Shown here piece by piece: positions 16,628 to 25,062 of a DNA stretch of 25,995 nucleotides. The notes below the pieces were generated by a model. It made no database searches. It was not told the DNA's origin and was given only the letters and a program-made list of their open reading frames with translations. The position numbers and the translations under genes are program-made. The DNA comes from a virus, in the IMG/VR virus record IMGVR_UViG_3300021182_000075, positions 1-25,995 of that record; one strand, 5' to 3'. Numbering within the stretch: position 1 is the first letter of the stretch; each line of letters opens with the position of its first letter.

Positions 16628-16636
16628 TGTGGATAA
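16628..16636 (-). promoter_or_regulatory. Perfect DnaA-box-like site TTATCCACA
   Basis: It reads TTATCCACA on the minus strand, in the gap between two genes. It is 30 bp upstream of the -10 at 16592, a spacing close to that at the other four copies. Confidence 0.5.
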
Positions 16637-18052: not shown

Positions 18053-18244
18053 TCATGTGGATAAGTCAGACTTTTTTCTATCCCACCAGTGTGGGTACCC
18101 GTTTACATATTCTAGTTTGGGTTGGTAGGGTAATTGGTAGTAGGGGCAGTCGGTTCTGATGTGATGAGTTATGCAAATACATTGGTCAACGGTTGCTTCA
18201 GGGTAAATCTTTCTACCCGCAATATCTCTTTCAATATATCCCAT
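18053..18244 (-). CDS. Small Cys/His/Trp-containing protein, 63 aa
   Basis: The product reads MGYIERDIAGRKIYP, then CICITHHIRTDC, then PQWWD-like ending (NGYPHWWDRKK). Two Cys and two His residues in CICITHH-x4-C could bind a metal. No family is recognised. Its last codons overlap the TTATCCACA site at 18056. It is preceded by a 332-base gene-free stretch full of RNA-like structures, which may be its leader. Confidence 0.55.
   Translation of the reverse strand: MGYIERDIAGRKIYPEATVDQCICITHHIRTDCPYYQLPYQPKLEYVNGYPHWWDRKKSDLST
18056..18064 (-). promoter_or_regulatory. Perfect DnaA-box-like site TTATCCACA
   Basis: It covers the last codons of the 63-aa gene, ends one base before its TGA stop is complete, and lies 23 bp upstream of the -10 of the HTH gene. 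Confidence 0.5.
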
Positions 18245-20572: not shown

Positions 20573-20581
20573 TTATCCACA
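20573..20581 (+). promoter_or_regulatory. Perfect DnaA-box-like site TTATCCACA
   Basis: It lies at one end of the 38-bp repeat and five bases upstream of a -35. In the direction of transcription it reads TGTGGATAA. The second copy with the same arrangement is at 21852. Confidence 0.5.
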
Positions 20582-20610
20582 CCTCCTTTGTACGAGGGGT
20601 TGGGACTAGA
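20573..20610. repeat. 38-bp direct repeat, copy A
   Basis: Identical to 21852-21889. On the minus strand it starts at the stop codon of the upstream gene (TCTAG), contains a full Shine-Dalgarno core (AAAGGAGGTG) and ends in the TGTGGATAA site. In both copies a promoter -35 follows within five bases. Confidence 0.95.
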
Positions 20611-20878
20611 GAACCTTTAATCTTTCTAAAACGTCTTCTGAGGTATGGCCGTCCCATTCTGGCGCACGTTCTAATACTTCTGCAAACTCACAAACTTCAT
20701 GCCAGAACCGCGCTGGTAAGTGATATGTTATCTGCTTTCCTTTTTCTTTGTTGATACCTAAGATAAACCAATCTCCAAACGAACTACCGTCAGAGTGAAG
20801 TGTTGAGCACCAAATATCTTGCTCCGTAAAATTACCCCATTCATCAGCAGATTTCTTGTAGTTTATTTGGCGGCACAA
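20606..20878 (-). CDS. Conserved-type phage hypothetical protein, 90 aa
   Basis: It reads WCSTLHSDGSSFGDWFILG, then ITYHLPARFWHEVCEFAEVL and ERAPEWDGHTSEDVLERL. The order TYHLP...RFW...(L/I)xxAPEWDGHT-xDVLxRL is a recurrent signature of a family of unknown function in many phages. A TTG is used as start at 20878, overlapping the previous gene by 16 bases; no better start is visible. The end carries the 38-bp repeat copy A. The role is unknown. Confidence 0.65.
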   Translation of the reverse strand: MCRQINYKKSADEWGNFTEQDIWCSTLHSDGSSFGDWFILGINKEKGKQITYHLPARFWHEVCEFAEVLERAPEWDGHTSEDVLERLKVL

Positions 20879-21009
20879 TGAAATAAAAAGGCGTATACGA
20901 TGCTCATAGAGTCATCGAAAGTGTGGTAGCCGTCACAATTACAAGATTGAGGCGACACCACAACTCCTTTATCTCCAACTGATATACATTTTGCTGAATG
21001 CTCTTTCAT
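20863..21009 (-). CDS. Small cysteine-containing protein, 48 aa
   Basis: I take the ATG at 21009 (MKEHSAKCISVGDKG). A longer frame would start inside a 23-bp repeat shared with the end of the HNH gene, which makes it unlikely. The product has three to four Cys (SPQSCNCDGYHTF, FHCAAK) and ends in a hydrophobic stretch (MSIVYAFLF). The gene sits just downstream of the 23-bp repeat and overlaps the following gene. Function unknown. Confidence 0.5.
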   Translation of the reverse strand: MKEHSAKCISVGDKGVVVSPQSCNCDGYHTFDDSMSIVYAFLFHCAAK

Positions 21010-21261: not shown

Positions 21262-21411
21262 TTAGTTTACCTCTTTGTTATTGGATAATTGGGGCGACCT
21301 TTTAGCTTTATTTGCTTTTTGAGATATTTCAAGACGCCTTTGAGGGGTGAGTTTCTTGGCGCGGGCTTTACCTCCGAGTGAGCCAAGTTTTACTGCTTCG
21401 GGGTTTTTCAT
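21262..21411 (-). CDS. Small basic protein with GGKARAKK-type motif, 49 aa
   Basis: It reads KNPEAVKLGSLGGKARAKKL then TPQRRLEISQKANKAKR. The LGxxGGKARAKKLTPxxRxEI(S/A)xxA pattern is a recurring small family in phages and bacteria, thought to bind nucleic acid. It overlaps the gene upstream by ATGA, so it is co-translated. A similar protein (GKRWAK-type) is coded on the plus strand at 25342. Confidence 0.65.
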   Translation of the reverse strand: MKNPEAVKLGSLGGKARAKKLTPQRRLEISQKANKAKRSPQLSNNKEVN

Positions 21412-21689
21412 AGATTTCCTGCTTTACGCATTTTTTGACGTTCTACTATGCTCATTTTGCTCCTCTCCTTTATTGCAGCCTTACCTTCAGGGCTGGAATT
21501 AAAAGACCTAATCGCTTTGTGCGCTTTATTAAAATCATTGCTTGCGGTTTTAAAAGCGTCAGTCTTTCTAATTGCATCAGATGCCCCTCCAAACTTTCCT
21601 TTTGATGTGTTAGCTATTTTATTTAGAGAATCAGAAGACTCATTGTATTTTGCGTGTAATGCTTTTGACTGTGCTGTTTGCTTATTCAT
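21408..21689 (-). CDS. Lys/Ser/Ala-rich helical protein, 93 aa
   Basis: I take the ATG at 21689 (MNKQTAQSKALHAKYN); an upstream in-frame ATG would lie inside the tRNA-like RNA at 21711-21813. The product is a low-complexity helical protein (DSLNKIANTSKGKFGGASDA, AFKTASNDFNKAHKAIRS) ending with KERSKMSIVERQKMRKAGNL, similar in style to the small basic proteins. It is preceded 21 bases upstream by the RNA structure, and its start has no Shine-Dalgarno sequence. Confidence 0.6.
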   Translation of the reverse strand: MNKQTAQSKALHAKYNESSDSLNKIANTSKGKFGGASDAIRKTDAFKTASNDFNKAHKAIRSFNSSPEGKAAIKERSKMSIVERQKMRKAGNL

Positions 21690-21710: not shown

Positions 21711-21813
21711 AGTAGTTTGCTGGTGGTGGCGACTGTTGGTAACGCTCCAACCCATTCCGGTTCATGAGACCAGCTCGCTGCCTTGAGCTAGACGCCTCCA
21801 TCAACAAACTACT
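21711..21813 (-). ncRNA. tRNA-like structured RNA in a long closing stem (anticodon-like CAU)
   Basis: Arms 21813-21790 and 21734-21711 pair at 20 of 24 positions plus one U-G. The inner end is a tRNA-like acceptor (GGCGTCT with AGTCGCC, one mismatch, then ACCA). Inside are a D-arm-like hairpin (GCTC...GAGC, loop with GG), an anticodon-like arm CTGGT/ACCGG with loop CTCATGA (anticodon CAT) and a T-arm-like GTTGG/CCAAC with a seven-base loop AGCGTTA. The T-loop lacks the usual TTCRA, and position 26 is missing, so it is not a standard tRNA. A promoter ends so that transcription would start at the first base of the stem. Confidence 0.55.
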
Positions 21814-21819
21814 ACCTTA

Positions 21820-21847
21820 AGTATATACCTTACCGCTAAGGTGTCAA
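21820..21847 (-). promoter_or_regulatory. Strong promoter TTGACA-N16-TATACT for the tRNA-like RNA
   Basis: The -35 is at 21847-21842 (TTGACA) and the -10 at 21825-21820 (TATACT). The predicted start, 6-7 bases on, is the first base of the long stem. A DnaA-box-like site is four bases upstream of the -35. Confidence 0.8.
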
Positions 21848-21851
21848 GCAC

Positions 21852-21860
21852 TTATCCACA
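21852..21860 (+). promoter_or_regulatory. Perfect DnaA-box-like site TTATCCACA
   Basis: It is the outer end of the 38-bp repeat copy B, four bases upstream of the -35 of the tRNA-like RNA promoter. In the direction of transcription it reads TGTGGATAA. Confidence 0.5.
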
Positions 21861-21889
21861 CCTCCTTTGTACGAGGGGTTGGGACTAGA
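21852..21889. repeat. 38-bp direct repeat, copy B
   Basis: Identical to 20573-20610. On the minus strand it starts at the methyltransferase stop codon (TTCTAG), carries AAAGGAGGTG and ends in TGTGGATAA. Confidence 0.95.
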
Positions 21890-23365: not shown

Positions 23366-23374
23366 TGTGGATAA
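23366..23374 (-). promoter_or_regulatory. Perfect DnaA-box-like site TTATCCACA
   Basis: It lies 30 bp upstream of the TATACT at 23330 (minus) and next to an inverted repeat on its other side, in the gene-poor control region. It is also about 34 bases upstream of a rightward -35. Confidence 0.5.
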
Positions 23375-23407: not shown

Positions 23408-23436
23408 TTTACAATTCATCTTAGAGGTGTTATAAT
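23408..23436 (+). promoter_or_regulatory. Strong promoter TTTACA-N17-TATAAT
   Basis: The -35 at 23408-23413 and the -10 at 23431-23436 have the ideal 17-bp spacing. The transcript begins about 23443 and meets a terminator at 23509-23533. Confidence 0.85.
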
Positions 23437-23442
23437 AACCCA

Positions 23443-23533
23443 GCAGAACAAGAATCTGCTCTAATTAGAAATATAAAGAAAAGGTATAGGTTAATCCTAT
23501 CGACCTCTAATCCGCCGTTGCAAGCGGATTTTT
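23443..23533 (+). ncRNA. Short RNA of about 90 nt, promoter to terminator
   Basis: The transcript predicted from the promoter above contains a hairpin AGCAGA/TCTGCT, a second one with GGTATAGG/CCTAT-CGACC, and the terminator hairpin. No reading frame of note is present. It may be a regulatory small RNA, or an antitermination/attenuation leader for the tRNA downstream. Expression is not shown by sequence alone. Confidence 0.55.
23509..23533 (+). terminator. Rho-independent terminator of the short RNA
   Basis: AATCCGC and GCGGATT form a 7-bp stem with an 8-base loop (CGTTGCAA) followed by TTT, giving five T's in a row including the stem end. Confidence 0.8.
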
Positions 23534-23545
23534 GCGTGTTATACT
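23518..23545 (+). promoter_or_regulatory. Candidate tRNA promoter TTGCAA-N16-TATACT
   Basis: The -35 lies in the terminator loop and the -10 at 23540-23545. Transcription would start about 23552, 32 bases before the tRNA. The overlap with the terminator suggests that the two signals exclude each other. Confidence 0.55.
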
Positions 23546-23583: not shown

Positions 23584-23656
23584 CGGTCTATCGCCTAGTG
23601 GCATGGCGTCTGCTTTGGGAGTAGAAATAATGGGGGTTCGATTCCCTCTAGACCGA
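23584..23656 (+). tRNA. tRNA-Pro (anticodon UGG)
   Basis: The acceptor stem CGGTCTA/TAGACCG is perfect (7 bp). A D-arm (GCC...GGC with TAGTGG loop), an anticodon arm TCTGC/GTAGA with loop TTTGGGA (anticodon TGG) and a T-arm with loop TTCGATT and stem GGGGG/CCCTC are all present. The variable loop is 6 bases and CCA is not encoded. It ends three bases before the stop of a minus-strand gene. Phage tRNAs usually supply codons that the phage uses more than its host. Confidence 0.9.
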
Positions 23657-23659
23657 CTG

Positions 23660-24575: not shown

Positions 24576-24689
24576 ACAAACTTGCGCTAGTATCTAGTAT
24601 AGTGTAATATGGGGATACGCCTACGCGAATAAGTGGTGGCACTACGACATGGAGCAGGTTATCGAGCGACCCATCCCTGCGCTTGATAG
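24576..24689 (+). other. Gene-free stretch with a possible promoter and folded RNA
   Basis: A TTGCGC-N17-TAATAT promoter-like pair occurs at 24583-24611, and GGGGAT (24611) can pair with ATCCCT (24673), enclosing hairpins CTAC/GTGG and GGTT/GACC. The shape is reminiscent of a degenerate tRNA but I could not form a credible anticodon arm, so it is not called as a tRNA. The 14-mer CTTGCGCTAGTATC here is the inverse of one at 25462. Confidence 0.35.
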
Positions 24690-24764
24690 TTTGTTTATAA
24701 GGGGGTGCTATTCGGATTAGAAACGCCGATTGAGGGTTTGATTCCCGACCCCCCTATAAGCAAA
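24690..24764 (+). ncRNA. tRNA-like RNA without anticodon arm, in a 17-bp stem
   Basis: Arms 24690-24706 and 24748-24764 pair at 15 of 17 positions plus one G-U that exists only on the plus strand. Inside are a D-arm-like CTA/TAG hairpin (loop TTCGGAT with GG) and a T-arm-like GGG/CCC hairpin with loop TTTGATT, close to the canonical TTCGATT. Between the two, where an anticodon arm should be, only 13 bases remain. It lies 16 bases before the ATG at 24781, the same placing as the element at 21711 before its gene. Confidence 0.5.
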
Positions 24765-24780
24765 TTATGAAAATAAAAAT

Positions 24781-25062
24781 ATGAAAATAAATGAGCTAAT
24801 ACAGTGGGCAGAAATGGGGAATGTCACCATCTCTAAAACTCTTTATCGAGAGCGAGTGCGTGAGATACCTCAATACAAGTCAAAAGACTTTAAGGACGGA
24901 GAAGATTTTTATACGCCTGTAAGCTATAAAAAAGTGCCGTACAAAGTATTTAATTATCTCGCACAAATAGACAAAGAAACCTACAAGATAACCCGCAAAG
25001 ATATGAAGCTTTTATTAGAAGCAGGGGCTAAGGTAGGAGAAATATATGGAACTTCCAACTGA
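24781..25062 (+). CDS. Hypothetical protein, 93 aa
   Basis: It starts MKINELIQWAEMGNVTISKT, a helical region that could be a winged-helix or HTH start, followed by a basic stretch (YRERVREIPQYKSKDFKDGE) and a C-terminal helix (DMKLLLEAGAKVGEIYG). The first ATG at 24766 is followed by a stop after five codons, so the ATG at 24781 is used. There is no Shine-Dalgarno sequence. It overlaps the next gene by 17 bases, so the two are co-transcribed on the plus strand. Confidence 0.6.
   Translation: MKINELIQWAEMGNVTISKTLYRERVREIPQYKSKDFKDGEDFYTPVSYKKVPYKVFNYLAQIDKETYKITRKDMKLLLEAGAKVGEIYGTSN

What the first reader, a model, noticed from the sequence alone, without database searches (positions are those of the whole stretch)
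21711..21813. tRNA-like core in a 24-bp stem, transcribed from its own strong promoter, upstream of a gene
The structure has acceptor-like, D-like, anticodon-like (CAU) and T-like hairpins ending in ACCACCA, but the T-loop and position 26 are non-standard and the acceptor is extended to 24 bp by outer stem pairing. The promoter TTGACA-N16-TATACT would start transcription at the first base of that stem. It could be a tRNA mimic or decoy in the leader of the gene at 21408, a processing signal, or a decayed tRNA-Met/Ile.
Basis: seen in the sequence. Interest (0 to 1): 0.65.

Follow-up and report, generated by a model that had tools for sequence, protein, structure and literature searches.

The report
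Stem-caged phage tRNA with swapped T-loop
The structure is a divergent transfer-RNA gene of a virus of bacteria, with a CAU anticodon, an unusual T-loop that also occurs in tRNAs of many other phages, and flanks that pair into a long stem starting at its own promoter; it is a new variant of a known kind, not a new class of RNA.

Summary
The structure is real. An RNA starting at about 21813 on the minus strand would begin with a 12-bp perfect stem (21802-21813 / 21711-21722) that encloses a tRNA-like body, 21796-21724. The body has anticodon CAU and an encoded CCA. Default tRNA tools miss it: the Rfam tRNA score is 17 against a gathering score of 29, and ARAGORN reports it only at a 92% threshold.

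The reason is its T-loop, AGCGUUA. This belongs to a T-loop variant with positions 54 and 58 swapped (A54/U58 instead of U54/A58). I found the variant in tRNA-Phe genes of T4-like, T5-like, Justusliebigvirus/Stephanstirmvirinae, Vibrio, Aeromonas and Streptomyces phages and in one tRNA-Ser. A covariance model of that tRNA-Phe family, built without the window, scores the body at 28.9 bits, the same as the phage's ordinary tRNA-Pro (29.5). The next best place scores 7.3.

So it is a divergent phage tRNA, not a riboswitch or unknown class. A second element (24686-24768 +) has the same outer-stem sequence, a tRNA-like T-arm and no anticodon arm, just upstream of another ORF. Whether element A is charged, a decoy or half-decayed cannot be told from sequence. 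The swapped T-loop in phage tRNAs is the most interesting part; I found no report of it.

The parts
21842..21847 (-). -35 box TTGACA
   Evidence: TTGACA-16-TATACT, 11 of 12 matches, tied best in 16.5-26 kb
21827..21842 (-). inverted repeat ACCTTA-GCGG-TAAGGT between -35 and -10; a further TAAGGTA at 21813-21819 over the start site: operator candidate
   Evidence: read directly from sequence; TAAGGTA positions
21820..21825 (-). -10 box TATACT
21852..21889 (-). 38-bp perfect repeat (second copy 20573-20610) holding TTATCCACA; ends 4 bp upstream of the -35 box
21802..21813 (-). 5' arm of the outer stem ('cage'), AGTAGTTTGTTG; predicted first base of the transcript at 21813
21711..21722 (-). 3' arm of the outer stem, CAGCAAACTACT
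21724..21796 (-). tRNA body (73 nt), acceptor GGCGUCU/AGUCGCC with a U.U mismatch, A73, encoded CCA at 21726-21724
   Evidence: R2 model 28.9 bits, E 1.3e-6; ARAGORN tRNA-Met(cat) c[21724,21796] at 92% threshold; Rfam tRNA 17.0 bits
21764..21766 (-). anticodon CAU in loop CUCAUGA (U33 present, G37)
21735..21751 (-). T-arm GTTGG AGCGTTA CCAAC, T-loop with positions 54/58 swapped (A54/U58)
21408..21689 (-). 93-aa ORF downstream, no family or relative found
24686..24768 (+). element B: sister element, 14-bp outer stem ATAGTTTGTTTATA/TATAAGCAAATTAT with the same TAGTTTGTTkAT / AGCAAAyTA sequence, then GGGGGT/ACCCCC
   Evidence: fold z -4.70, 0 of 200 shuffles as good; shared stem p about 0.01-0.02
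24734..24746 (+). T-arm of element B, GGG TTTGATT CCC (canonical-type loop)
   Evidence: Rfam tRNA-Sec 13.7 bits, below cut-off
24781..25062 (+). 93-aa ORF 12 nt downstream of element B
23584..23657 (+). ordinary tRNA-Pro(UGG) of the same phage, used as yardstick
   Evidence: Rfam 55.5 bits; R2 29.5 bits

Best explanation
Element A is a phage-encoded tRNA gene of the CAU (Met or Ile2) type, divergent but related to other phage tRNAs. Its T-loop carries the swapped 54/58 pair that recurs in phage tRNA-Phe. It is transcribed from its own strong promoter as the first element of a small operon. The transcript starts at the first base of a leader that pairs with the trailer, so the pre-tRNA, including its CCA, is enclosed in an extended double-stranded stem. 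Inferred, not shown: ribonucleases cut the stem and release the tRNA, leaving a short-leadered mRNA for the downstream 93-aa ORF. The tRNA then serves in translation, or replaces a host CAU tRNA attacked by defence nucleases.
For: (1) A covariance model of 12 phage tRNA-Phe genes built without the window finds the body at 28.9 bits, E 1.3e-6, next to the true tRNA-Pro at 29.5; the next place scores 7.3. (2) A BLAST query of the T-arm/acceptor/CCA end (33 nt) hits 35 phage records; every one that is annotated at the match or that I opened is a tRNA-Phe gene or pseudo-tRNA (GAA), with the match in the same register. (3) In 4.87 Mb (both strands), a 5-bp T-stem closed by G-C with loop A.CG.T occurs 14 times: 12 in phage tRNAs, once by chance (L159), and once as element A. 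(4) The swapped loop is real biology: stems GTTGG/CCAAC, GATGG/CCATC and GTACG/CGTAC vary around a constant AUCGUUA, and in tRNA-Ser Apostate has UUCGAUC and Berthold AUCGUUC, the same loop with 54/58 exchanged. (5) CCA, CAU, U33, GG in the D-loop and C56 are present. (6) The promoter places the start at the stem's first base.
Against: The body lacks two nucleotides between the D and anticodon stems, has a U.U mismatch in the acceptor, G37 where tRNAs for A-starting codons usually have A37, and G55 instead of U55. The anticodon arm is not favoured in unmodified folding. The Rfam tRNA score is below cut-off. No homologue of the whole element was found, so there is no covariation of the cage beyond the A/B comparison. 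Transcription, processing and charging are untested.
Confidence: 0.6

Rival explanations
1. Elements A and B are a pair of cis-acting leader structures (mRNA 5' stabiliser, RNase III/P processing signal, or antitermination element in the manner of HK022 put sites) that happened to be built from captured tRNAs; the outer stem is the functional part and the tRNA core is only a cap.
For: A and B share the outer stem sequence (TAGTTTGTTkAT 11/12, AGCAAAyTA 8/9, same U.G wobble on the RNA strand) although their interiors differ; 7 of 400 shuffled windows have as good a pair. Both end 12-22 nt before the ATG of a small ORF. Both basal helices are 21 layers long. No phage tRNA-Phe gene examined has such a cage (9 bp or less in 16).
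Against: A keeps anticodon loop, CCA and T-arm, which a mere cap would not need. Of 81 box-promoter units in other viral contigs none has such an element. No promoter was found next to B.
Confidence: 0.2
2. A decayed tRNA-Met/Ile gene without function, kept because it lies in a leader.
For: Missing positions 25-26, U.U in the acceptor, G37, G55; weak anticodon arm. B looks like a tRNA that has lost its anticodon arm.
Against: Long perfect cage, strong promoter starting exactly at it, intact T-stem, encoded CCA and U33; the odd T-loop is not decay but a shared variant.
Confidence: 0.2
3. A decoy or resistant substitute for a host CAU tRNA attacked by an anticodon nuclease (VapC-like or defence nuclease), not itself needed for decoding.
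For: Phage tRNAs are proposed or shown to evade tRNA-targeting defences (PMC10264068, PMC11555353); A has G37 next to a CAU anticodon and lacks U54, U55 and A58, the usual modification sites.
Against: No nuclease, host or assay is known for this phage; the link is an analogy only.
Confidence: 0.12
4. A bacterial/phage Y RNA (YrlA type): long terminal stem for a Ro60-like protein plus a tRNA-like module.
For: Same plan as described for YrlA: 90-150 nt, stem of paired ends, tRNA-like domain (PMC8394870).
Against: No TROVE/Ro60 gene in the window or nine related contigs, control search positive; no Rfam Y RNA match; A has an anticodon arm and CCA.
Confidence: 0.03

Closest known systems
Phage tRNA-Phe(GAA) genes with T-loop AUCGUUA (Serratia/Erwinia T4-like phages, EcS1, Proteus Stubb, Vibrio pv27, Streptomyces JXY1, Aeromonas LAh_8, UAB_1)
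   Same: T-stem GTTGG/CCAAC identical in most, T-loop with A54, C56, G57, U58, U59, A60; AG after the T-stem in most; CCACCA-type end in most; cloverleaf
   Different: Anticodon CAU instead of GAA; G55 for U55; two nt fewer between D and anticodon stems; 12-bp leader/trailer cage; stands alone behind its own promoter instead of in a tRNA array
Cellular tRNA-Met / tRNA-Ile2 (CAU)
   Same: CAU anticodon in a CU-CAU loop, G1-C72, A73, CCA
   Different: Canonical T-loop UUCRANY and A37 in cellular tRNAs; swapped T-loop pattern found in 0 of 143 genomes of one bacterial class, canonical pattern in 127
YrlA / bacterial Y RNA (PMC8394870)
   Same: Paired ends forming a long stem, tRNA-like module
   Different: No Ro60 gene found, no family match; A has anticodon arm and CCA
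HK022 put sites (from memory, not tested)
   Same: Two related structured RNAs in leaders of phage operons on opposite strands
   Different: put RNAs are two simple hairpins; A and B are tRNA-like with one long stem; antitermination untested

Membership tests
tRNA gene (Rfam RF00005) | score at or above curated gathering score (29 bits) | tested here: not met
   17.0 bits; a sister phage tRNA-Phe with the same T-loop type scores 36
tRNA gene (ARAGORN) | reported at default threshold | tested here: not met
   only at 92% of threshold, as tRNA-Met(cat); at 90% 0.28 false hits per shuffled window
tRNA gene | cloverleaf with 7-bp acceptor, D arm, 7-nt anticodon loop with U33, T-arm, CCA | tested here: inconclusive
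   acceptor with U.U mismatch, T-arm and anticodon loop intact, D/anticodon junction short by 2 nt, CCA encoded
tRNA gene | aminoacylation | not testable with these tools
   needs an experiment
Swapped-T-loop phage tRNAs | 5-bp T-stem, loop A54-N-C56-G57-U58-U59-N60 | tested here: met
Swapped-T-loop phage tRNAs | found by a covariance model of the family built without the window | tested here: met
   28.9 bits, E 1.3e-6; background 7.3 bits
YrlA Y RNA | Ro60/Rsr (TROVE) gene nearby | tested here: not met
   window and nine related records; records may be incomplete
YrlA Y RNA | match to a described Y RNA family | tested here: not met
   no such Rfam match
HK022 put-type antiterminator | antitermination of RNA polymerase | not testable with these tools
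   needs an experiment

The most novel reading that the evidence does not exclude
Phages of many lineages, independently or by exchange, carry tRNAs whose T-loop has the universal U54-A58 pair swapped to A54-U58, a form not seen in the bacterial genomes sampled. It would remove the host modification sites U54 and A58 and might hide phage tRNAs from host tRNA-modifying or tRNA-cutting enzymes. Element A extends the variant to a CAU tRNA that is additionally caged in a leader/trailer stem.
Probability: 0.3. Interest if true: 0.75.

Novelty: new variant of a known kind. Interest (0 to 1): 0.5.

Why it matters
Standard tools overlook tRNAs with the swapped T-loop: element A falls below both cut-offs, and many of the sister tRNA-Phe copies are unannotated in GenBank. 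The 54-58 pair is described as conserved (PMC7912444). A naturally recurring swap in phages gives a direct test of how far that pair is needed for tRNA function and modification. If the swap or the cage protects phage tRNAs from host enzymes, it is a new way for phages to keep translation going under tRNA-targeting defences.

Tried and rejected
Riboswitch, ribozyme or other known RNA class: no Rfam match. Close homologues of the whole element: none in phage records, IMG/VR by loop pattern (one hit, in a tape-measure ORF), by outer-stem pattern (8 stretches with no tRNA-like interior), or by single-sequence covariance model in 45 sources and ten contigs. Pattern CGCCACCACCAGCAAAC: 63 hits, none with a matching 5' arm and tRNA-like interior. 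Relatives by the downstream ORFs: none. Structured leaders in related contigs: other hairpins exist but none matches a tRNA model. Promoter-box units in 81 places: no comparable element. Ro60 gene: absent. Element B as a tRNA by bacterial or mitochondrial ARAGORN settings: nothing, so B is called tRNA-like only by its T-arm. Host from terminase relatives: unclear, three MAG contigs from unrelated groups.

Full report
Observation. On the minus strand the sequence downstream of TTGACA-N16-TATACT (21847-21820) can fold into a 103-nt structure of -41.9 kcal/mol, z -3.97, better than all 200 shuffles. The transcript would start at about 21813, the first base of a 12-bp stem (21802-21813 with 21711-21722). 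Inside lie UGG/CCA, then the acceptor-like helix, D-like, CAU and T-like arms. Default tRNA search finds only tRNA-Pro at 23584-23657. With the threshold lowered to 92%, ARAGORN reports exactly one more gene, tRNA-Met(cat) 21796-21724; at 90% shuffled windows give 0.28 such hits each. The Rfam tRNA model gives 17.0 bits on nearly the same interval. On these tests alone the tRNA claim would stay weak.

What settled it. A BLAST search of the region gave hits, at E 10 only, to a 29-nt block covering T-arm, acceptor and CCA in T4-like phages, and the block lay in the same register inside a gene annotated tRNA-Phe. A 33-nt query with this end gave 35 records. All those annotated at the match are tRNA-Phe genes or a pseudo-tRNA-GAA; the rest have no feature there, and the one of these I opened (Proteus phage Stubb) holds the same tRNA-Phe. 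The family is large: 698 records match the Erwinia copy. Its members fall into two T-loop forms. One is canonical (A511 and Moby TTCGATA, T5 TTCAATT). The other is ATCGTTA, in which positions 54 and 58 are exchanged, with T-stems that covary (GTTGG/CCAAC, GATGG/CCATC, GTACG/CGTAC). In a 12-sequence alignment of the family 95.6% of cells pair and 15 of 21 pairs show changes on both sides. A second isotype shows the same exchange: Acinetobacter phage Apostate tRNA-Ser has TTCGATC, Berthold ATCGTTC.

Element A carries GTTGG AGCGTTA CCAAC, the swapped form with one more change (U55 to G). Scanning 4.87 Mb, both strands, for a five-pair T-stem closed by G-C around A.CG.T gave 14 places: 12 in phage tRNAs, one chance match, and element A. 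A covariance model of 12 tRNA-Phe sequences, without the window, finds element A at 28.9 bits (E 1.3e-6), as high as tRNA-Pro (29.5), with the next place at 7.3. I take this as the main proof that element A is a tRNA homologue. A limit: the model is of tRNA-Phe, and the strongest shared part is the T-arm.

Is the swap phage-specific? In 143 genomes of one bacterial class the pattern TAGCTCAG..GGATCGTTNCC was found in none, the canonical GGTTCGANNCC in 127. This is one class and one D-arm type only. A review of T-loop nucleotides describes the U54 (A54)-A58 pair as conserved and contains no mention of phages or of U58 (PMC7912444). My literature searches found no description of the swapped form, but the library is incomplete.

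The cage. The 12-bp leader/trailer helix is unusual: 12 of 5000 random places in the window reach 12 bp, and none of 16 phage tRNA-Phe genes exceeds 9. A search for similar stems found element B at 24686-24768 plus: 14-bp stem, z -4.70, with the same TAGTTTGTTkAT and AGCAAAyTA sequences and the same U.G wobble on the RNA strand. In 400 shuffled windows 7 had a pair of stems as similar, so the sharing is suggestive (p about 0.02), helped by both elements lying just upstream of small ORFs on the strand of those ORFs. B has a T-arm GGG TTTGATT CCC; of five T-arm-like motifs in the window only this one and tRNA-Pro have G-C stems. B has no room for an anticodon arm and is not scored as a tRNA by any program. 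Its best Rfam tRNA-type score is tRNA-Sec 13.7 bits, below cut-off.

Mechanism, with status. Shown: structure, promoter consensus, tRNA homology, swapped T-loop, encoded CCA, cage. Inferred: transcription from 21813; co-transcription with the 93-aa ORF (no terminator was called at this place); release by host ribonucleases; use as a CAU tRNA or as a resistant substitute. Not decidable here: whether the core is charged. Defects (two nt missing between D and anticodon stems, U.U in the acceptor, G37, G55) leave partial decay or a decoy role open. Evasion of tRNA-targeting defences by phage tRNAs has been proposed and shown elsewhere (PMC10264068, PMC11555353).

Known systems. Y RNAs of the YrlA type have a similar plan, paired ends and a tRNA-like module (PMC8394870), but no Ro60 gene was found in the window or nine relatives while the control search was positive, and element A has an anticodon arm and CCA. 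No Rfam class other than tRNA gives a meaningful match. Verdict: new variant of a known kind, a caged CAU phage tRNA with the swapped T-loop.

Noticed in passing
16628-16636, 18056-18064, 20573-20581, 21852-21860, 23366-23374: All five exact TTATCCACA (DnaA-box) copies lie just upstream of sigma-70-like promoters, several apparently leaderless (-10 box 6-9 nt before ATG).
   Followed up: partly
L259-L276 (phage tRNA-Phe and tRNA-Ser genes): Swapped 54/58 T-loop (AUCGUUN) recurring in phage tRNA-Phe of several lineages and in one tRNA-Ser, with canonical sister copies; many copies are unannotated in GenBank.
   Followed up: partly
24686-24768 +: Element B: long-stem tRNA-like structure without anticodon arm, 12 nt before an ORF of 93 aa, sharing its outer stem sequence with element A.
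   Followed up: partly
23408-23535 +: TTATCCACA box, promoter TTTACA-17-TATAAT, an ORF-less stretch with hairpin AGCAGA..TCTGCT and terminator-like CCGC..GCGGATTTTTG: candidate small RNA upstream of tRNA-Pro.
   Followed up: no
20573-20610 and 21852-21889: Perfect 38-bp repeat from a gene's stop codon to the next promoter's upstream edge.
   Followed up: partly
whole window: Almost no Shine-Dalgarno sequences before the phage's genes; starts often read TAAT-ATG or TTAT-ATG.
   Followed up: no
L084 contig G001 29283-29344 +; G006 20855-20911 +: Related phages carry other strong hairpins directly behind a CCACA box and promoter; G001's lies 2 nt before an ATG. No tRNA-model match.
   Followed up: partly
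L193, about 1083 onward +: A box-promoter unit whose transcript begins like a tmRNA (GGATTGGTTTCGACG); no Rfam match at the gathering score.
   Followed up: no
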